64,000 nucleotides of DNA, from the NCBI GenBank assembly GCA_002238825.1, contig MPNC01000004.1:69241-133240 (forward strand). The letters run 5' to 3'. Positions 6,266-26,900 of this stretch are shown here, in pieces (position 1 is the stretch's first letter; the number at the start of each line of letters is the position of its first letter). The notes under the pieces are model-generated. The model made no database searches. It saw nothing but the letters and a program-made list of their open reading frames with translations, and was not told the DNA's origin. The translations under genes and the position numbers were made by a program. This DNA comes from SAR202 cluster bacterium bin87. GTDB taxonomy: Bacteria > Chloroflexota > Dehalococcoidia > Lucifugimonadales > UBA3495.

Positions 6266-6302
6266 CGCTTCAGAAGCACTCGGCGTGGTCCGTTTCCTTG
6301 CC

Positions 6303-6422
6303 GGATCTGTCATTGCGAGCCCAGCGCGGCAATCCCATTGCCATATCTGTCATTGCGAGCGCAGCGCGGCAATCCCGTTGCCAGATCTGTCATTGCGAGC
6401 GCAGTGTGGCAATCTCGTTGCC
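6303..6422 (+). repeat. Three tandem copies of a 40-bp A-core half
   Basis: The unit ATCTGTCATTGCGAGCGCAG followed by CGCGGCAATCCCGTTGCCAG recurs with starts at 6309, 6349 and 6389 (counted at GTCATTG), period 40. It is the left half of the dispersed A core without its terminal inverted repeat. The rest of the 6266-6594 gap holds no gene I can support. Confidence 0.75.
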
Positions 6423-8110: not shown

Positions 8111-9238
8111 ATGCCCCGCGCCGCCTTCGTCTACGACGACGCCATGAGCCAGCACGTGCTGCGTCAGGACCACCCCATGCGGCCCATCCGGCTGCGCAAC
8201 ACCTACGAACTGCTGGAAGCCTACGACGCATTCGACGGCGTCGACTCGTTGCTGGTCACGCCTACCCTGGCCGACGAGACCAGCGTGGGCGCGTTCCACT
8301 CCCGTGACTACATGGCCGCCGTGCGCACCTTCAGCCTCGGCCTCACCGGGTTCCAGCCCCAGCGCTTCGGGTTCGCCCAGGGCGGCGACAACCCGACCTA
8401 TCCCGGCATGTACGAGGCCGCGATGCTCAGCACCGGCGCGACCCTCACCGCCGCCCGCATGGTCGCCGACGGCGAGGTCCCGGCCGCGTTCAACATCAGC
8501 GGCGGCCTGCACCACGCGGCGGCCCGCAACGCCAGCGGCTTCTGCGTGTTCAACGACCCCGTGGTCGCCATCATGTACCTGCTGCAGCGCGGCCTGCGCG
8601 TCGCCTACGTGGACATCGACGCCCACCACGGCGATGGCGTACAGGACGCCTTCTACAACGACCCCCGCGTGCTCACCATCTCGGTCCACGAGTCGGGGCA
8701 GTACCTGTTCCCCGGCACCGGCTTCGCCGGCGAGGTCGGCGCGGGCGATGGCGTCGGCTACGCCGTCAATCTGCCCCTGTATCCCTACACCGACGACGAG
8801 ATCTACCTCGAGGCCTTCGAGGCCGTGGTGCCTCCGCTGCTCGAAGCCTTCGCGCCCGACGTGCTGCTCACCCAGCTCGGCATCGATTCCTACCACACCG
8901 ACCCGCTCACCCACCTGCAGGTCACCAGCCGAGGGTTCATCGGCGCCGTGACGCGACTTGGCGGGTTGGGTTACCCGTGGCTGGCCACCGGCGGCGGCGG
9001 GTACGACATCGGCGCGGTGGCCCGCTGCTGGACCCTGGCCTACGGCGTCATGTGCGGCGCGGACTGGCCCGACCGCATCCCCACACCGGCCATCGAGCGG
9101 CTGGGCCGCACCACCCTGCGCGACACCGAGATACCGGAAATCCCCGACCACATCCGCGCCGACGCCCGCGCCCTGGCCACCGAGAGCGTGGCCGCCATCC
9201 GGGACGCGGTGTTCCCGGTTCACGGCCTGGAAGCGTAG
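8111..9238 (+). CDS. acuC: Histone-deacetylase-family deacetylase, AcuC type
   Basis: The 375-residue protein carries the full class I/II HDAC active site: GGLHHA (His134-His135, proton relay), DIDAHHGDG (zinc ligands Asp170 and His172), LGIDSYHTDP (third ligand Asp259) and GGGGYD (transition-state Tyr). Bacterial relatives (AcuC) remove acetyl groups from acetyl-CoA synthetase or act on small acetylated amines. The ATG at 8111 follows AAGGATAGG. The gene converges with trmI, and the two 3' ends overlap by 19 bases. Confidence 0.9.
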   Translation: MPRAAFVYDDAMSQHVLRQDHPMRPIRLRNTYELLEAYDAFDGVDSLLVTPTLADETSVGAFHSRDYMAAVRTFSLGLTGFQPQRFGFAQGGDNPTYPGMYEAAMLSTGATLTAARMVADGEVPAAFNISGGLHHAAARNASGFCVFNDPVVAIMYLLQRGLRVAYVDIDAHHGDGVQDAFYNDPRVLTISVHESGQYLFPGTGFAGEVGAGDGVGYAVNLPLYPYTDDEIYLEAFEAVVPPLLEAFAPDVLLTQLGIDSYHTDPLTHLQVTSRGFIGAVTRLGGLGYPWLATGGGGYDIGAVARCWTLAYGVMCGADWPDRIPTPAIERLGRTTLRDTEIPEIPDHIRADARALATESVAAIRDAVFPVHGLEA

Positions 9239-10113
9239 CCCTCCCGGCCCGGCGGCACGCAGCGCACCGCCGTGGTGATGAACCCGCTGTGGGCCACCAT
9301 CCGGTGGGCCGGCCGCACGCTGCGCCGCGACACGTTCCAGCCCCGCAGCAGGGTCTCGGCGGTCTCCACCCGAGCGAAGCGGCCGTCGTTGTTCAGGGCC
9401 AGCACCACTTCCTGCACCTGCAGAACGGTGGGCAGGAACGACAGCAGGATCCCGCCGGTGACCAGCGCGTTGGCGGCGGCGTCCACCGCGTGCCAGGGCT
9501 CGGGCAGGTCCAGTATCACCCGGTCAACGTCCGTGTCGGAGATGCCATCGAAGATGTCGCCCACCGTAACCTCGTGGCGCGAGGTGTCGGGTATCACGGA
9601 GCGCACGTTGGACAGCGCCTTGTTCACCACCGCCTCGTTGATCTCGTAGGAGTGGACGCGCCCCATCGGACCAACCGCGCGCAGTAGGGCCGTAGTCAGC
9701 GCGCCCGAGCCGAACCCCGCCTCGACCACCATAGCACCGGGAAAGATGTCCGCCATGGACACGATGTTGCCCAGGTCCTTGGCGTAGATCACCTGGGGCC
9801 CGCGCGGCATCAGTCGCACGTAGTCGCCCAGCGTGGGCCGGATGCCCAGCATCACGTGGCCGCGACTGGTGGTGTACCAGCCGCCCACGGATTGCCCGAT
9901 GACGTCGTCATGGGGCAGCCACCCCAGGTGGCAATGGAACTCGCCGCCCGGGTTGAGGGTCTCCTGGTAGGTGCGGCCCTTGCGGTCCAGGAACAGGGCC
10001 AGCTCGCCGGCGCGGAAACGGCCGCGGTCACCAGCGTCAACCTCCGTCACCGCCGGGGGCACGGCCCCGTTGCCATCCTGATCGTTGCTGGCGTCATCGT
10101 CTGGCGTTGTCAT
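9220..10113 (-). CDS. trmI: tRNA (adenine-58-N1)-methyltransferase TrmI
   Basis: This enzyme methylates A58 in the T loop of tRNA using S-adenosylmethionine. The 297-residue chain has the small N-terminal beta domain followed by the TrmI catalytic core: YAKDLGNIVSMADIFPG, VVEAGFGSGALTTALLRAVGP (SAM motif I), SYEINE (motif II Glu) and DRVILDLPEPWHAV (motif IV), a layout specific to TrmI. The first 25 residues are an acidic, low-complexity extension. The ATG at 10113 lies six bases after a TATAAT read on this strand, so the mRNA is probably leaderless. Confidence 0.93.
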   Translation of the reverse strand: MTTPDDDASNDQDGNGAVPPAVTEVDAGDRGRFRAGELALFLDRKGRTYQETLNPGGEFHCHLGWLPHDDVIGQSVGGWYTTSRGHVMLGIRPTLGDYVRLMPRGPQVIYAKDLGNIVSMADIFPGAMVVEAGFGSGALTTALLRAVGPMGRVHSYEINEAVVNKALSNVRSVIPDTSRHEVTVGDIFDGISDTDVDRVILDLPEPWHAVDAAANALVTGGILLSFLPTVLQVQEVVLALNNDGRFARVETAETLLRGWNVSRRSVRPAHRMVAHSGFITTAVRCVPPGREGYASRP

Positions 10114-10118
10114 TGGTG

Positions 10119-10125
10119 TATTATA
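10119..10125. promoter_or_regulatory. Overlapping divergent -10 elements of trmI and the DUF2203 gene
   Basis: The sequence TATTATA reads TATTAT on the plus strand and TATAAT on the minus strand. It is 9 bases from the plus-strand ATG (10134) and 6 bases from the minus-strand ATG (10113), so both transcripts would start at or next to their start codons and compete for the same DNA. Confidence 0.5.
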
Positions 10126-10133
10126 CCGCCGTT

Positions 10134-10532
10134 ATGCAGGAGCGGTTGTTCAGTCTGGAAGAGGCCAACGACCTCGTGCCGTGGCTCGAGGAGCGTTTTG
10201 AGGCCATGGCGCCGCTGCGGGCGGAGTTGGTCCGCCAGCAGGAGGAGCTGCTCTCTCTGCTGCGTCGACGCCGCAGCAACGGCCACTCCAGCAGCGAAGA
10301 GGACATCGCCGAGACCGAGCGCATCGTCTCTCAACTCACCCAACGCCTGCAGGACGCGGTGCGCGAGATCACCGAGCGGGGCATCCAGGTGCGCGACATC
10401 GGCCGCGGCCTGGTCGACTTCCCATCCAACCGTCAGGGCGACGTCGTATACCTCTGCTGGCAGCGCGGCGAGCCCTCCATCGACTGGTGGCACCCCACGG
10501 ACACCGGCTTCGCGGGCCGCCGGCCACTGTAG
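10134..10532 (+). CDS. DUF2203 family protein
   Basis: The 132-residue protein starts LFSLEEANDLVPWLEERF and ends with GLVDFPSNRQGDVVYLCWQRGEPSIDWWH and GFAGRRPL, the two conserved blocks of DUF2203. The middle is a long, charged amphipathic helical region. The molecular role of the family is not known. The gene is divergent from trmI with only 20 bases between the start codons. I chose the ATG at 10134 because upstream codons overlap the shared -10 element. Confidence 0.88.
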   Translation: MQERLFSLEEANDLVPWLEERFEAMAPLRAELVRQQEELLSLLRRRRSNGHSSSEEDIAETERIVSQLTQRLQDAVREITERGIQVRDIGRGLVDFPSNRQGDVVYLCWQRGEPSIDWWHPTDTGFAGRRPL

Positions 10533-10572
10533 CGCGCGGCGGGCTAGCGTCGCCAATGTAAGGTTGGCGGCG

Positions 10573-10937
10573 AAAGGTTGCATTGGCCTGGTGGCAATGC
10601 AAGGAACCTTGCACTGGGGTCGGAGTAGTGCAAGGTTAGAGGCCCAAAGGTTGCATTGGCCTGGTGGCAATGCAAGGAACCTTGCACTGGGGTCGGAGTA
10701 GTGCAAGGTTAGAGGCCCAAAGGTTGCATTGGCCTGGTGGCAATGCAAAGAACCTTGCACTGGGGTCGGAGTAGTGCAAGGTTAGAGGCCCAAAGGTTGC
10801 ATTGGCCTGGTGGCAATGCAAGGAACCTTGCACTGGGGTTGGAGTAGTGCAAGGTTAGAGGCCCAAAGGTTGCATTGGCCTGGTGGCAATGCAAGGAACC
10901 TTGCACTGGGGTTGGAGTAGTGCAAGGTTGGAGGCTC
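10573..10937. repeat. Five tandem copies of a 73-bp unit, each with two hairpins
   Basis: Units begin at 10573, 10646, 10719, 10792 and 10865, with degenerate partial copies on both sides (sixth start at 10938). Each unit holds TTGCATTG-N9-CAATGCAA and CCTTGCACT-N11-AGTGCAAGG. The junction TGCAAGGAACCTTGCA is itself a near-perfect palindrome, so alternative foldings compete. Copies differ by only one or two bases (for example GGTCGG against GGTTGG). There is no spacer diversity, so this is not a CRISPR array. It ends about 100 bases before the Fic gene start. Confidence 0.92.
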
Positions 10938-11035
10938 AAAGGTTGCACTGTCTGTATGTTAATGCAGGTTTACCGTGCTATCCTTGCATTAATTTGTGAA
11001 TGCCCACAATCGGTCGACCCGATGCGAGGACAGCG

Positions 11036-12208
11036 ATGCGAGAATCCGATTTCACTGACGCAAGCCCAGGACGGCTGGTAGCAGCGCAAATGCTTGATGG
11101 TAGTGACTGGCCGGCATTTGTACCTGATCCATTGCCTCCTGAATTGACTTGGAGCCAAACAACGGTTGGGTTGCTGTCTCAGGCTGACCAGGCATTGAGC
11201 CGCCTAAATGGACGCGCATCAAGTATGCCTAATCCGTATTTGTTGATTAGACCGATGACAACGCGCGAGGCGGTGGCGTCGAGCCGAATCGAAGGTACGA
11301 CTGCTGATTTTCCAGATGTTTATCAGTTTCAGTTGGACGGAATGGCGTCCGATCGGGACGATGCCGAGGAGGTTGATAATCACGTCAGGGCCATGCAGTT
11401 GGGTTTGGAGCGTTTGCAACAACTGCCAATGAGCCTGCGGCTAATTCGCGACGTTCATCGAGAACTGATGTCAGGTGTTAGAGGAGGCAACCGCCGTCCG
11501 GGAGAGTTTCGCAATGGGCAGGTGGTGATTGGCGGACGACGCGGCATGCAGTACGCGCGATACGTTCCTCCACCACCCGTTGAGATGACAACGGCACTGT
11601 ACGCGCTGGAAGAGTACATTGTTGCTGATAGCCCGATGCCGATGTTGGTCCAGGCGGCACTAGTACACTACCAGTTCGAGGCCATTCATCCGTTTGAGGA
11701 CGGCAACGGACGGACTGGCCGAGTCCTTATAACTTTGCTACTTTGCGTACGCGAGTATTTACAGCACCCTTGGTTGTACCTCAGTGACTACTTTTCTAGA
11801 TATCGTCAGGAATACGTAGACTTACTGCTAGGCGTGAGCTTGCGCGGTGAGTGGGATGCATGGCTTCAGTTTTTTCTGATGGCCGTAGCTGCAGTGGCCA
11901 ATGACGCACTGGCTCGAATAGAGAATCTGGAGAAGATCAGCTCAGACTACCAGGACAGGGTCAGGGCTCACCGTACCGCTGGCACAGAGTTCCAACTCAT
12001 CACGTCGCTTTTTGAACAGCCTTATATAACTTCTCCCCGCGTCCAGTCGCTCCTCGGAGTGTCTCACACGTCGGCTCAGGGACATTTGGCGCGCCTTGTT
12101 GATACGGAGATACTGACCCCGGTTGAGGGACGCCGCCGCCCCCAGCTTTACGTCGCCCAGGGCATCCTCAACGCTATTGCCGAGGACCCGGACTTCCGCG
12201 ACTTCTGA
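11036..12208 (+). CDS. Fic-domain protein AMPylator, class II, with C-terminal winged helix
   Basis: Fic enzymes transfer AMP from ATP to target hydroxyls. The 390-residue protein has the N-terminal autoinhibitory motif SSRIEG (Ser82 to Glu86-Gly87, [ST]xxxE[GN]) and the catalytic HPFEDGNGRTGR with His218. A C-terminal region (LGVSHTSAQGHLARLV) resembles a winged-helix DNA-binding domain, as in Fic proteins that control their own expression. The ATG at 11036 follows GAGGACA. Base composition is visibly more AT-rich than in neighbouring genes, suggesting acquisition by transfer. The 73-bp palindrome array lies immediately upstream and could hold its operators. Its 3' end overlaps the convergent protease gene by 35 bases. 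Confidence 0.92.
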   Translation: MRESDFTDASPGRLVAAQMLDGSDWPAFVPDPLPPELTWSQTTVGLLSQADQALSRLNGRASSMPNPYLLIRPMTTREAVASSRIEGTTADFPDVYQFQLDGMASDRDDAEEVDNHVRAMQLGLERLQQLPMSLRLIRDVHRELMSGVRGGNRRPGEFRNGQVVIGGRRGMQYARYVPPPPVEMTTALYALEEYIVADSPMPMLVQAALVHYQFEAIHPFEDGNGRTGRVLITLLLCVREYLQHPWLYLSDYFSRYRQEYVDLLLGVSLRGEWDAWLQFFLMAVAAVANDALARIENLEKISSDYQDRVRAHRTAGTEFQLITSLFEQPYITSPRVQSLLGVSHTSAQGHLARLVDTEILTPVEGRRRPQLYVAQGILNAIAEDPDFRDF

Positions 12209-13098: not shown

Positions 13099-14595
13099 TT
13101 AGATGAACCGCGCCTGCGCCCGGGCCTCGTCCGCGTAGTCGATGTACACGGTGATGACCTCGCTGAAGAAGTCCACCGCCTCCACGCCCTGCTCCCGCTG
13201 CCCCACGCCCGAGGCCTTCAGGCCGCCGAAGGGCAGGTGTACCTCGCCGCCCAGGGTCGGCGCGTTGACGTGGACCATGCCCGCGTCCACCGTGTTGATG
13301 TACCGGAAGGCCCGGGGGATGTCCCGGGTGTAAACCGACGACGACAGGCCAAACTTCACGCTGTTGGAGATCTCCACCGCGTGGTCCAGGTCGCGGGCGC
13401 GAAACACCGTCAGCACCGGCCCGAAGATCTCCTCCTTGGCGATGCGCATGTCCGGCGTCACTTCGGTGAAGATTGTCGGCTCCACGTACCAGCCCTCGTC
13501 GTAGATGCCGCCGGAAAGCGTGCGCCCGCCGAAGGCCACGGTCGCGCCTTCGTCCCGGCCCACGGTGATGTAGTCCGACACCGTGCGCTGCTGCGACTCG
13601 CTGGACAGCGGGCTCACATCGATGCCGTCTTCCAGCCCGTCGCCAATGGTCAGCTTCGACGTGCGCTCGATCAGTTCCTCCATGAACTGGTCGTACACCC
13701 CGTCCTCGACAATCACCCGGCTGGTGGCGGTGCAACGCTGCCCGGTCGAGCCGAACGCCCCCTGCACGATGCCGCCCAGCGCCTTGTCCAGGTCGGCGTC
13801 GGCCAGCAGGATCACGGCGTTCTTGCCGCCCATCTCAGCCTGCACCTTCTTCAGCAGCGACGCGCCGTGGGTGTACAGGTCCGTGCCGATCTCCGTGCTG
13901 CCGGTGAAGGAGATGCCGGCCACGTCGGGCGACTCCACCAGCGCGTTGCCCACGCTGCCGCCGGGGCCGGTGATCAGGTTGAGCACGCCGGGAGGCACCC
14001 CGGCTTCCTCGAACACCTCGGTCAGCTTCACCGCGCACAGCGGCGTGCTGGAGGCCGGCTTGAAGATGATCGCGTTGCCGCAGATCAGCGCCGGCGCCAT
14101 CTTCCACGCCGGGATGGCGATGGGGAAGTTCCACGGTGTGATGATGCCGACCACTCCCAGCGGCCGGCGCACCGTGTAGGCCACCGTGTTAGGCAACTCC
14201 GACGGCGTGGTGTAGCCGAACATGCGCCGACCCTCGCCGGCGGCGTATTCCATGATGTTCATGGCGCGCTTGACCTCGCCCCGGGCGTCGGGCAGCGGCT
14301 TGCCCTCTTCCTCGGTGATGGTCCGGGCGATCTCCTCGCCGCGACGTTCCATGATCTCCAGGGCGCGGAAGAGCACCTGCGCGCGCACCGGCGCCGGAGT
14401 GTCCGCCCAGCCGGCGGCGGCTTCCGACGCGGCGGCCACGGCCCGCAGGGTGTCCTCCGGGTTGGACAGCTGGAAGTGCCCCAGCAGCATGTCCTTGTGT
14501 GCCGGGTTGTACACGGAGTAGGTGCGGCCGGAGTCGGATGGCGTCCACTGGCCGTTGATGAAATTGTTGTGCGTGCGAACTTCGGTGATGGGCAT
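13099..14595 (-). CDS. NAD(P)-dependent aldehyde dehydrogenase
   Basis: The 498-residue protein is a canonical aldehyde dehydrogenase: TPWNFPIAIPAWK and KPASSTP cofactor loops, GSTEIG, EMGGKNAV (general-base Glu) and GQRCTATSR with catalytic Cys288, then KEEIFGPVL and LPFGGLKASGVG. The sequence is closest in style to semialdehyde dehydrogenases of the succinic/alpha-ketoglutaric type, but the substrate cannot be settled. It probably is cytoplasmic and transcribed alone. The ATG at 14595 was chosen because the alignment of the NNFINGQW motif near residue 10 matches the family. Confidence 0.92.
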   Translation of the reverse strand: MPITEVRTHNNFINGQWTPSDSGRTYSVYNPAHKDMLLGHFQLSNPEDTLRAVAAASEAAAGWADTPAPVRAQVLFRALEIMERRGEEIARTITEEEGKPLPDARGEVKRAMNIMEYAAGEGRRMFGYTTPSELPNTVAYTVRRPLGVVGIITPWNFPIAIPAWKMAPALICGNAIIFKPASSTPLCAVKLTEVFEEAGVPPGVLNLITGPGGSVGNALVESPDVAGISFTGSTEIGTDLYTHGASLLKKVQAEMGGKNAVILLADADLDKALGGIVQGAFGSTGQRCTATSRVIVEDGVYDQFMEELIERTSKLTIGDGLEDGIDVSPLSSESQQRTVSDYITVGRDEGATVAFGGRTLSGGIYDEGWYVEPTIFTEVTPDMRIAKEEIFGPVLTVFRARDLDHAVEISNSVKFGLSSSVYTRDIPRAFRYINTVDAGMVHVNAPTLGGEVHLPFGGLKASGVGQREQGVEAVDFFSEVITVYIDYADEARAQARFI

Positions 14596-14723: not shown

Positions 14724-14900
14724 CCGCCATACCACGGTACCCCCGTCGTGGTTCCGTTCGGATTCGGTTCATACGCCGTGTGTCAGTGCCGCAGTCTCCA
14801 ACCGCCATACCACGGTACCCCTGTCGTGGTTCCGTTCGGATTCGGTTCATACGCCGTGTGTCAGTGCCGCAGTCTCCAACCGCCATACCACGGTACCCCT
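14724..14900 (+). repeat. 78-bp tandem repeat, about 2.3 copies
   Basis: CCGCCATACCACGGTACCCC recurs at 14724, 14802 and 14880 (period 78), with the two full units almost identical. The third copy is interrupted and changes into GTCATTCCGGCGAAAGTAGGAATCC, half of another dispersed palindrome also seen inside the restriction enzyme gene. No gene lies between 14596 and 15180. Confidence 0.85.
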
Positions 14901-14941
14901 GTCATTCCGGCGAAAGTAGGAATCCACATGATCGTTGCACA

Positions 14942-15499: not shown

Positions 15500-15778
15500 A
15501 TGCGCGAAATACGGGAGGACATAGCGAAAGACTGCCTGCTACAGCTTTTGGTCATCGTCGAGCAGGGCGAGCCCGTGGCGATCACGCGTGATGGGCTGGC
15601 GGTAGCGCACTTGGTGCCCGCTCACGAGGGTGCGGGCGAGGTCACTCCAGAGGATGCGGAAACCCTCAAACGGCAGAAAGCCCTGGCGGAGAACTTTATC
15701 GAGTGGTGCGCTCAGCAGGAACCCATGTCCGATAGTTTGCAGGATATCCTGGGACGGCGGAGCTCTGATCGTACTTGA
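15500..15778 (+). CDS. Phd/YefM-type antitoxin
   Basis: The 92-residue protein begins MREIREDIAKDCLLQLLVIVEQGEPVAITRDGLAVAHLVP, the Phd/YefM pattern of a short DNA-binding domain ending in an ITR-G-x-x-VA-LVP strand. The remaining charged helical tail (ETLKRQKALAENFIEW) would bind the toxin. Its stop codon overlaps the start codon of the following PIN-domain gene by one base, the standard coupling in a type II module. Confidence 0.82.
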   Translation: MREIREDIAKDCLLQLLVIVEQGEPVAITRDGLAVAHLVPAHEGAGEVTPEDAETLKRQKALAENFIEWCAQQEPMSDSLQDILGRRSSDRT

Positions 15779-16185
15779 TGGACTCCGCGATCATTCTTGA
15801 CGCATCGGTCACTGCCGCGTGGGTGCTCGACGATGAAAACTCGCCGTACGCTGACGCGGTGATAGATCGGATTAGATCCGAAGGGGCAACGGTCCCCCAG
15901 TTTTGGCATATCGAAATGCGCAACGTGCTGGTGATCGCAGAGCACAGACGCCGGATAAACGCGGACGTCGCCGACGGGCATCTGATCAGACTGCAATCTC
16001 TTCCGATAAGGGTCGATCAGGGCCTGGACCTCCCCACCGCCTACTCGCTGGCGAGGACGCATAACCTGACCTTCTACGATGCCATTTACCTCGAAGCTAC
16101 CCTCAGGAATGACGGCGCGTTGGCGACGTTGGATCGTGCGTTGACCAGAGCGGCGAACGCCGAAGGCCTCTTCTTGGTCGTTTAA
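15778..16185 (+). CDS. VapC-like PIN-domain toxin ribonuclease
   Basis: The 135-residue PIN protein has IILDASVTAAWVLDDE (first catalytic Asp), WHIEMRNVL (Glu), LTFYDAIYLEATLRN (Asp/Glu pair) and LATLDRALTRAA (fourth acid), the full Mg-binding set. I use the ATG at 15778, not the TTG one codon upstream. It forms an operon with the Phd-type antitoxin and is followed by a strong hairpin. Confidence 0.88.
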   Translation: MDSAIILDASVTAAWVLDDENSPYADAVIDRIRSEGATVPQFWHIEMRNVLVIAEHRRRINADVADGHLIRLQSLPIRVDQGLDLPTAYSLARTHNLTFYDAIYLEATLRNDGALATLDRALTRAANAEGLFLVV

Positions 16186-23919: not shown

Positions 23920-26900
23920 ATGACCACGCATCTCGACATGACCGACCCGAAGTACGCGGCGGCGGCAAACTTTATCCTGGACCGCTACGAAAGCGAAGGG
24001 GCCGAGGCCAATGTCACCTCCGCAGTGCGTGATTTCCTCCTCCTGACGGGGTTGGCCCGTGCCGAAGAGATCGTCGAAGAGAACCCACCCAGCGACGGTA
24101 GCCGCCGCGCCGTCGACCTCACCGCGCTCGACACCTTCATCGAGTTCAAAAAGCGCATCGGCACCAACGCCGGTTTCGACCCCGACCCGGCCAACGTCCA
24201 GCAGTTGGACGACTACCTGGAACTCTCCAAGTCCGACGGCAAGGGCATCCGCACCGGCATCCTGACCGATGGGAAGTACTGGCTGCTGCGCTGGCCTGAG
24301 GCCGGCCCGGTGCGGACCTCGCGTCCCTATGGCTTTGTCCTGGAATCGTCGGGCCAGTGGAATCTGCTTCGCGAATGGCTGCGGGACAGCGCCCTCATTT
24401 CGCTGGAAAGCATTCCCGCCGATCGTTCCAGCGTGGAGCAGTACCTGGGTCCCGGCAGCCCCACCTATCAGCGCGACATCGACGTCCTCGCCAGCCTCTA
24501 CCATCACGCCGCCCAGTACGAGACCGTCAGGGTCAAGCGCCGGCTGTGGGAGAACCTGCTTCGCGCCGCCCTCGGCGAAATCGCCCGCGACCCCGCCGAG
24601 CTTGACCACCTGTTCATCCGTCACACCTACCTCAGCCTCGTCATCGGCATGGCCGTCCAGGCCTCCTTCGGCATCGACCTGCGCCAGTTGGCCGAGATCG
24701 ACCCCTCCGACCTGCTCCAGGGGCGCCGCTTCCGCGACGCCACCGGGCTCAGCGGCATCATCGAGTCTGACTTCTTCGCCTGGCCCGACGAGGTGGGCGG
24801 CCACGACCTCCTCAAGGCCCTGGCCCGCCGCGTCGCCCGCTTCGACTGGCAGAACGCGCCGCCCGACATCGCCGCCATTCTCTACGAGGCCGTCATACCG
24901 CCCGACGAACGTCGCACCCTGGGCGAGTACTACACCCCCGCCTGGCTGGCCCGGGCCATGGTCACCGAGCTGGTGGATGACCCGTTGCAGCAGCGCGTCC
25001 TGGACCCCGCCTGCGGCTCCGGCACCTTCATCGCCGAGGCCGTGCGCCATTTCCTGGAAGCGGCGGGTGTTTTTCGCATGGATGCACTGGATGAACGGGA
25101 TGATGAAGCCAACCCGTCATTCCTGCGAAGGCAGGAATCCATAGGTCCACGCACAAACGACGGTCTGGATTCCCGCGTTCGCGGGAATGACGGTAGCCGG
25201 GACGATGAGCTGAACGGGCCGGCGGGTGGGTGGCTCGAACCCAAAGAACTCCTGGAACCCAAAGAACTCCTGGAACCCAAAGAACTCCTGGAACCCAAAG
25301 AACTCCTGGAACCCAAAGAACTCCTGGACCGCCTGCGCGTCGCCGTCACCGGTATCGACGTCCATCCCGTGGCCGTCCACCTTGCCCGCGCCGCCTGGGC
25401 CCTGGCCGCCCGGCCCGCCATCGAGGCCGCCGTGCGCGCCGGCTACGACGCCTCCGGATCCGTTCCCGTCTACCTGGGCGACGCCCTGCAACTCCGGTTC
25501 AACGCCGGCGACCTCTTCGCCGGCCAGCAGGTCACCATCCAGGTGGATGACGACGCTAACTCCGAGCTGACCTTCCCCATCTCCCTGGTGGACCGCGCCG
25601 ACACCTTCGACTCCCTCATGAGCCAGGTCGCCGCCGACATCGAGGCCGGCGACGACCCCATGCTCGCGCTGGATGACCACGGCGTCAGCGACGCCAACGA
25701 GCGCAATACCCTGGCCGCCACCATCGCCGTCCTGCAACGCCTCCACGACGAGGGCCGCAACCACATCTGGGCCTACTACGCCCGCAACCTCGTCCGACCC
25801 GTTGCCCTAGCGCGCACCAAGGTCGACGTGATCATCGGCAACCCGCCGTGGTTGAGCTACCGCAACACCGCTGACATTTTGCGTTCCGAACTGGAAAATC
25901 AGAGTAAGAGCCGCTATGGCATTTGGGCAGGAGGTCGGTATGCCAATCGTCAAGACGTGGCAGGCCTGTTCTTTGCCCGCAGCGTTGACCTGTACCTGAA
26001 GGACGGCGGCAGGATCGGTATGGTGTTGCCCCACAGCGCGTTGCAAGCGGGACAATATGCCAAGTGGCGCAGCGGGGTATGGGAGCAACGAGGTTTGACT
26101 GCTGGAGGCAACCTCAGCAAAAACGTGGAACGCACACTTGGGATTGATTTCTCGCACAAGACCGCTTGGGATCTTGAGCAATTGGAGCCCAATACTTTCT
26201 TTCCTGTCGCGTCCTGCGTTGCGTTTTCGAAACGTGTGGGCGAAAACGCCGAAGGAACCCCGCTGGCCGGATTTGTCGAACAGTGGCGAGGGGAAACCGG
26301 CAGCTCAGATGTGGTGCGAGTACATACTGATATCGTTGACACTTCGCTGGTAGTCGATTCTCAATACTCTGCTTACTCGCGGCAAGGGGCGACCATAGTG
26401 CCGCGGTGCCTCTTTTTCGTTCGCGAAACGAACAGCACCGTCGTTGTACAGGCTGGCCAAACCGTTACTGTCAACCCTAGGCGAGGCTCCCAGGACAAGG
26501 CTCCGTGGCGTGACCTCGGCTTATCTTCCATCGCCGAGCAAACCGTCGAGCGCACCCACCTTTACGACGTACATTTGGGCGAGACGTTGGTTCCGTACGC
26601 TACCTTGGAACCGCTCAAAGCAATCTTGCCTGTCAAACGGGGGGAAGAAGAGATACCGACCGAAAGCGACGTCACCCGTGATGTCCGCTTGAGTGGCCTC
26701 GGACAGCGCATGCGTCGGCGATGGCAGACCGTTGCTAGCACATGGGAGGCTTACAAGAACCCTGCTAACAAGCTCAACTTGTACGAGCGCTTAGACTATC
26801 ACGGTGGATTATCCGCTCAACTGAATTGGCAAAATCATTCGGCAGGCAGACCAATTCGAGTTGTGCAGAACGAGTCAGGCACTCCGACGGCAGCATTGCT

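What the first reader, a model, noticed from the sequence alone, without database searches (positions are those of the whole stretch)
10573..10937. 73-bp x 5 array of paired palindromes upstream of a Fic gene
Five near-identical units, each with two stems that can be rearranged (TTGCATTG/CAATGCAA, CCTTGCACT/AGTGCAAGG and the hybrid TGCAAGG-AA-CCTTGCA), end 100 bases before fic. There are ten or more binding-site-like palindromes with no coding potential. Possibilities include a titration array for a regulator, a transcribed multi-hairpin RNA, or a VNTR. I know of no described element of this shape.
Basis: partly seen in the sequence, partly recalled or inferred. Interest (0 to 1): 0.78.

Follow-up and report, generated by a model that had tools for sequence, protein, structure and literature searches.

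The report
Self-binding DNA array before toxin gene
In front of a gene for a Fic enzyme (a relative of the anti-phage toxin SoFic) lies a strictly spaced ladder of 24 repeated DNA half-sites, which the Fic protein's own DNA-binding tail probably grips to keep the gene in check; the same spacing rule recurs before fic genes in many bacterial phyla, each with its own letters.

Summary
The array is real (5.1 copies of 73 bp, 98% match, found nowhere else in its 4.96-Mb genome) and larger than described. It is a lattice of 24 alternating 7-bp half-sites (TTRCAYT/ARTGYAA, 10555-10990) spaced 18, 13, 18, 24 bp, so same-direction half-sites lie 31 and 42 bp apart (about 3 and 4 helical turns). All six relatives with the orthologous fic have the same lattice at the same place, with diverged spacers and 7-12 sites; a seventh genome (G191) lost fic and keeps a decayed lattice. 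Outside the genus, in 101 fic upstreams from many phyla, repeats peak at exactly 31 and 41 bp (35% and 39% against 7-8% in controls; replicated in 29 further loci), each locus with its own half-site, which tracks the Fic winged-helix recognition helix. Best explanation: the self-operator of a SoFic-like Fic protein, bound by its C-terminal winged helix and probably autorepressing, here enlarged by tandem duplication. CccR and CbFic2 are experimental precedents for Fic-HTH proteins binding DNA. An RNA multi-hairpin and a global titration array are not supported. No binding was measured here. I found no published account of the spacing rule or its amplification.

The parts
10555..10990 (.). whole half-site lattice: 24 alternating half-sites, steps 23,(18,13,18,24)x5,18,23
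10573..10937 (+). five near-identical 73-bp units (10573, 10646, 10719, 10792, 10865)
10578..10602 (.). 25-bp palindrome TTGCATT-N11-AATGCAA (first copy; repeats every 73 bp)
10609..10633 (.). 25-bp palindrome TTGCACT-N11-AGTGCAA (first copy; 31 bp after the previous, 42 bp before the next)
10596..10615 (.). inner palindrome AATGCAAGG-AA-CCTTGCACT (13-bp half-site spacing, first copy)
10938..10990 (+). diverged proximal lattice (TTGCACT-N11-AATGCAG, then TTGCATT); last half-site ends about 46 bp before the fic ATG
11036..12208 (+). fic, 390 aa, SoFic-like class II Fic protein (start chosen from ortholog alignment)
11279..11296 (+). class II inhibitory motif SSRIEG (residues 82-87)
11687..11713 (+). 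Fic catalytic motif HPFEDGNGR (residues 218-226)
11981..12154 (+). [quoted passage not shown]
10107..10532 (+). upstream DUF2203 gene, conserved synteny marker (not itself part of the operator)

Best explanation
The array is the self-operator of the Fic protein encoded just downstream, amplified in tandem. The C-terminal winged helix of a SoFic-like, class II Fic protein recognises the 7-bp half-site TTRCAYT. Dimers most likely sit on the 25-bp palindromes (half-sites 18 bp apart). Neighbouring dimers follow at 31 bp (3 turns) and 41-42 bp (4 turns) on the same face of the helix, so they can bind cooperatively as a row over the fic promoter and repress it. Tandem duplication of the 72/73-bp period (3+4 turns) gave room for about 12 dimers instead of the roughly 4 to 6 of its relatives, which should sharpen repression and tie up more of a potentially toxic enzyme. 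Shown here: the lattice, its conservation with fic, the cross-phylum spacing rule, the tracking of recognition helix and half-site, and the predicted winged helix. Inferred: that Fic itself is the binder, that the outcome is repression, and that the extra sites buffer the protein.
For: (1) Strict geometry in the genus: all 20 array palindromes in 7 genomes have exactly N11 although N5-16 was allowed. The 18/13/18/23-24 lattice is found at all 7 orthologous fic genes while the spacers have diverged. (2) Linkage to fic: the lattice lies directly upstream of fic in every carrier. Strict N11 palindromes occur in 6 of 7 carriers (G184 has the TTGCAAT variant of the lattice) and in 1 of 7 non-carriers; that one, G191, has lost fic at the same site and keeps a decayed lattice. 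(3) The offsets 31 and 41, predicted from the genus, were tested on 101 fic upstreams outside it: 31 bp in 35/101 against 7.1% of 1542 control windows (p 8e-16), 41 bp in 39/101 against 8.1% (p 3e-17), no excess at 29, 32, 39 or 42. In 29 further loci: 10/29 (p 2e-5) and 13/29 (p 1e-7). Half-site triples in alternating orientation: 42 of 101 outside the genus (48 of 108 in all) against 0/303 shuffles, and 10/29 against 1/290. (4) Half-site families follow recognition-helix families (FTTAQRAI with CGAAAATAAG, SNPTARQAV with CTTTGAAAG, PVSAQR with GTATAATA, SHTSAQG/SNQTAQG with TTRCAYT): Mantel r 0.42, p 0.0005; partial given Fic-domain identity r 0.21, p 0.001. (5) AlphaFold gives a confident C-terminal winged helix, and the whole fold matches SoFic. 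(6) Independent tandem amplification of lattice periods before other fic genes: 71 bp x5.8, 41 bp x3.6, 40 bp x3.6, 41 bp x2.4, 72 bp x2. (7) Precedent: CccR, a Fic-HTH dimer, represses its own promoter through inverted repeats (PMC9755527); CbFic2 binds DNA through its HTH, which promotes dimerisation (PMC10628234).
Against: No binding or expression was measured. DNA binding by SoFic itself had not been shown as of 2023 (PMC10628234). The CccR operator has a 36-bp centre spacing, not 18/31/41. Fic-domain identity also predicts half-site similarity (partial r 0.24, p 0.0015), so part of the tracking is common descent. Only about half of the fic upstreams show the rule at this sensitivity. No sigma-70-like promoter was found in 10500-11100, so the position relative to the promoter is unknown.
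Confidence: 0.85

Rival explanations
1. The lattice is bound by a different regulator (for example a host global regulator or a phage protein) that controls fic, and Fic's own winged helix serves another purpose.
For: Binding partner not measured; fic is solitary here and any trans-acting protein could read the sites. Fic-domain similarity also predicts half-site similarity.
Against: The half-site changes from locus to locus with the Fic recognition helix while the spacing stays fixed across phyla, which fits a binder encoded by fic itself. No other target palindrome in the genome.
Confidence: 0.08
2. A transcribed multi-hairpin RNA (regulatory leader or small RNA made of ten stem-loops).
For: One unit folds better than shuffles (-29.9 kcal/mol, z -2.9); arms within 18-bp pairs match better than shuffled partners (119 of 133 against 107).
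Against: Predicted folds differ between orthologs and are weak in G184 and G187 (z -1.6, -1.7). Arms paired at 13 and 23 bp also match above chance, as for a repeated binding site. No Rfam match above threshold. Spacing by whole helical turns between separate hairpins has no reason in RNA.
Confidence: 0.04
3. A neutral variable-number tandem repeat made by slippage, without function.
For: Units 98% alike; unit number differs between G000 (5) and G191 (1).
Against: The register of degenerate flanking sites and of all orthologs is the same. Spacers diverge while half-sites and spacing stay. The same periods are amplified independently before other fic genes. Copy number may still be partly neutral.
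Confidence: 0.03

Closest known systems
CccR self-operator of Yersinia pseudotuberculosis (PMC9755527)
   Same: Fic domain plus C-terminal HTH; inverted repeats in its own promoter; dimer needed; autorepression
   Different: One pair AGATAATCAT-N26-ATGATAATCT (36 bp centre to centre), no array; half-site, spacing and lattice differ; CccR is only distantly related to SoFic-type proteins
SoFic / Sofic anti-phage Fic proteins (PDB 3eqx, 3zcn; PMC12249575; PADLOC SoFic)
   Same: Same domain order, class II inhibitory motif, C-terminal domain with winged-helix fold; fold match E 8e-19, PADLOC E 5e-111
   Different: 27% identity; below the NCBIfam SoFic equivalog cut-off (170.6 of 550 bits); DNA binding and operators of SoFic not described in the papers found; the E. 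coli Sofic has a small antitoxin gene AS1, for which no candidate was seen here
Coxiella CbFic2 (PMC10628234)
   Same: Class II Fic with C-terminal winged HTH; DNA binding promotes dimerisation and shifts the enzyme from AMPylation towards deAMPylation
   Different: No specific operator known; binds random DNA; proposed target is histone H3
Type II toxin-antitoxin operators with several palindromes (for example phd-doc)
   Same: A Fic-fold protein, several operator palindromes before the gene, expected autorepression
   Different: No separate antitoxin gene; the DNA-binding part is fused to the Fic enzyme; up to 24 half-sites on a fixed lattice

Membership tests
SoFic-like class II Fic proteins | catalytic motif HPFx[DE]GN[GK]R | tested here: met
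   HPFEDGNGR, residues 218-226
SoFic-like class II Fic proteins | N-terminal inhibitory motif [ST]xxxE[GN] | tested here: met
   SSRIEG, residues 82-87; S82, E86 and G87 invariant in 13 homologs
SoFic-like class II Fic proteins | C-terminal winged helix | tested here: met
   AlphaFold H316-327, H333-340, H344-356 and a wing; fold match to 3zcn and 3eqx
SoFic (NCBIfam equivalog NF046030) | score above the curated cut-off of 550 bits | tested here: not met
   170.6 bits; so SoFic-like, not a SoFic equivalog
SoFic anti-phage defence system | protects cells against phage | not testable with these tools
   PADLOC SoFic model E 5e-111 only
Fic-HTH self-operator (CccR type) | inverted repeats upstream of the fic gene itself | tested here: met
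   24 half-sites, 10555-10990
Fic-HTH self-operator (CccR type) | CccR spacing: 10-bp arms, 26-bp gap | tested here: not met
   7-bp arms, 11-bp gap, 31/42-bp phasing
Fic-HTH self-operator (CccR type) | direct binding and repression by the Fic protein | not testable with these tools
   needs EMSA, footprint and reporter
REP/BIME-like dispersed palindromic repeats | many copies across the genome | tested here: not met
   only at fic in 4.96 Mb
structured RNA element | match to a known family, or structure conserved in orthologs | tested here: not met
   no Rfam match above the gathering score; folds differ between orthologs

The most novel reading that the evidence does not exclude
The array works as a DNA antitoxin: by binding about 12 Fic dimers it holds the enzyme in a DNA-bound, inactive or deAMPylating state. 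Loss of the array's integrity or accessibility (for example during phage attack on the chromosome) frees the enzyme to AMPylate its target. The number of operator units would then set the threshold of an abortive-infection switch, and the 31/41 lattice would be the common sensor of SoFic-type defence.
Probability: 0.12. Interest if true: 0.88.

Novelty: new variant of a known kind. Interest (0 to 1): 0.64.

Why it matters
SoFic-type Fic proteins are widespread single-gene anti-phage toxins. How they are kept silent, and what their C-terminal domain does, is open (PMC12249575; DNA binding by SoFic not shown, PMC10628234). A spacing rule that holds across phyla, with half-sites that change with the recognition helix, gives a concrete prediction: the C-terminal domain reads a 13/18/23-bp half-site lattice in the gene's own promoter. 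It can be tested with short oligonucleotides in cultivated species such as Sinorhizobium meliloti. The window's 24-site array has the most sites of the upstream regions mapped here and suits the study of cooperative, helix-phased autoregulation and of operator number as an evolving dial.

Tried and rejected
Rfam gave only chance-level mir-239 matches. Consensus promoter and terminator scans found nothing in 10500-11100. Inverted-repeat counting with mononucleotide shuffles is inflated and was replaced by offset histograms with dinucleotide shuffles and 1542 control windows. In the controls, offsets divisible by 3 (30, 39, 42, 66, 72) are raised by coding sequence, so only 31, 40, 41 and 71 were read as signal. 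A global titration array was rejected because there is no other target. RNA hairpins were considered and disfavoured. DNA hits L017-L020 look like chance matches, mostly in coding DNA. The Das 2009 SoFic structure paper is not held.

Full report
What is there. The array is as described: five 73-bp units at 10573-10937 plus a partial sixth, 98% alike, ending 98 bp before the fic start codon at 11036. The start codon was chosen from the ortholog alignment. The unit occurs nowhere else in the 4.96-Mb genome. With up to two mismatches allowed, the only near-perfect TTGCAYT-N11-ARTGCAA palindrome outside the five units is the degenerate copy at 10943-10967 in the same promoter; all others carry two mismatches and are about as frequent as matches to the reversed-pattern control.

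The true structure is a half-site lattice. Reading every TTRCAYT (forward) and ARTGYAA (reverse) gives 24 alternating half-sites from 10555 to 10990 with start-to-start steps 23, then (18, 13, 18, 24) five times, then 18, 23. Same-direction half-sites are therefore 31 and 42 bp apart and the period is 73, that is 3, 4 and 7 turns at 10.3-10.5 bp per turn.

Relatives. Six other genomes of the genus carry the orthologous fic (58-71% identity) next to the DUF2203 and/or trypsin-like gene that flank it in the window. All six have the lattice in the intergenic space before fic: G187, G192, G182 and G190 begin with steps 23,18,13,18,23; G185 has 13,18,23,18,13,18,23,18,13; G184 has the variant half-site TTGCAAT and 31/18/24 steps. 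In a genus-wide pattern scan that allowed spacers of 5 to 16, every palindrome in these arrays had a spacer of exactly 11, while the few palindromes elsewhere had other spacers. Spacer sequences have diverged. G191, with flanks about 91% identical to the window, has lost fic (no tblastn remnant) and has an SDR gene and a pentapeptide-repeat gene (both named by reading their translations) around the site. It keeps one near-identical unit and a decaying lattice. So the window's five units are a recent local amplification of an older element of 7-12 half-sites.

The rule extends across phyla. I took 101 upstream regions of fic homologs from outside the genus (from; record titles name Chloroflexi, Planctomycetota, Nitrospirae, Proteobacteria, Omnitrophota, Verrucomicrobia, archaea and others). 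Direct 8-mer repeats (one mismatch allowed) in the last 260 bp peak at 31 (35 loci against 8.3 expected) and 41 (39 against 7.7), with most neighbours at background. Against 1542 windows of the same loci away from fic the rates are 34.7% against 7.1% and 38.6% against 8.1% (p 8e-16 and 3e-17). A fresh sample of 29 loci from the phylum gave 10/29 and 13/29 (p 2e-5, 1e-7). Alternating triples of 9-mers occur in 42 of 101 upstreams outside the genus (48 of 108 in all) against 0 of 303 shuffles, and in 10 of 29 against 1 of 290 in the fresh sample, several with literal 18/23 spacing. Cultivated examples include S. meliloti pSymA and Microvirga (41 bp), A. fabrum and a C. freundii plasmid (31 bp). 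Three paralogous fic genes of the window's own genome were also checked: two have a 40-bp repeat (CTTTAATA/CTTGAATA), the third an inverted pair. Tandem amplification of lattice periods arose independently elsewhere (71 bp x5.8 at L049; 41 and 40 bp x3.6 at L144 and L051).

Who binds. The half-site differs between loci and tracks the recognition helix of the encoded Fic winged helix. Mantel r is 0.42 (p 0.0005) and 0.21 after controlling for Fic-domain identity (p 0.001); the Fic domain keeps an independent correlation too (0.24, p 0.0015), as expected from common descent. The window protein is a class II Fic enzyme with intact catalytic and inhibitory motifs, matches PADLOC SoFic (E 5e-111) and SoFic structures, and its predicted C-terminal winged helix is confident. 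It falls below the NCBIfam SoFic equivalog cut-off, so I call it SoFic-like.

Mechanism. By the precedent of CccR, a Fic-HTH dimer that represses its own promoter through inverted repeats (PMC9755527), the likeliest reading is autorepression by cooperative, helix-phased binding of Fic dimers. CbFic2 shows that DNA binding can also change dimerisation and activity of such enzymes (PMC10628234), so the array may also hold the enzyme in a quiet state; this is a hypothesis. DNA binding by SoFic had not been shown as of 2023, and the 2025 E. coli Sofic study discusses the C-terminal domain only as a partner of the AMPylase domain.

Alternatives. RNA folds of orthologous arrays differ and two are near background; arm matching above chance is seen for the 13- and 23-bp pairings as well as the 18-bp pairing, where it is strongest. 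Rfam has nothing above threshold. A neutral VNTR does not explain the conserved register.

Limits. No wet data; draft assembly; promoter not located; about half of fic upstreams do not show the rule at this sensitivity; the literature search covers open-licence papers only.

Noticed in passing
L070 (G191:C1:286000-304000), about 8300-8500: A close relative has lost fic at the syntenic site but keeps an orphan, decaying lattice between an SDR gene and a pentapeptide-repeat gene.
   Followed up: yes
L161, L162, L163 (own genome, contigs C6, C34, C15): Three further SoFic-like fic genes of 428 aa in the same genome; L161 and L162 share a minimal 40-bp CTTTAATA/CTTGAATA operator and similar upstream DNA, L163 has an inverted pair TTCAAG/CTTGAA.
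   Followed up: partly
L049 upstream of fic (-463 to -50): Independent 71-bp x 5.8 array with half-site AAGCAAA/TTTGCTT before a fic gene of another family, convergent with the window array.
   Followed up: partly
L037 upstream of fic (-583 to -39): 139-bp x 3.9 tandem array before fic carrying CTTGATAC/GTATCAAG sites; the period is close to twice 70.
   Followed up: no
window 6298-6422: 40-bp x 3.1 tandem repeat TTGCCAGATCTGTCATTGCGAGCGCAGCGCGGCAATCCCG.
   Followed up: no
window 14724-14903: 78-bp x 2.3 tandem repeat (99%) beyond the aldehyde-dehydrogenase-like gene at 13099-14595 (named from its translation).
   Followed up: no
window 25237-25328: 18-bp x 5.1 perfect tandem repeat GAACCCAAAGAACTCCTG, possibly coding (EPKELL).
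   Followed up: no
window 15500-16185: Overlapping small genes that read like a Phd-type antitoxin and a PIN-domain (VapC-like) toxin; judged from the translation only.
   Followed up: no
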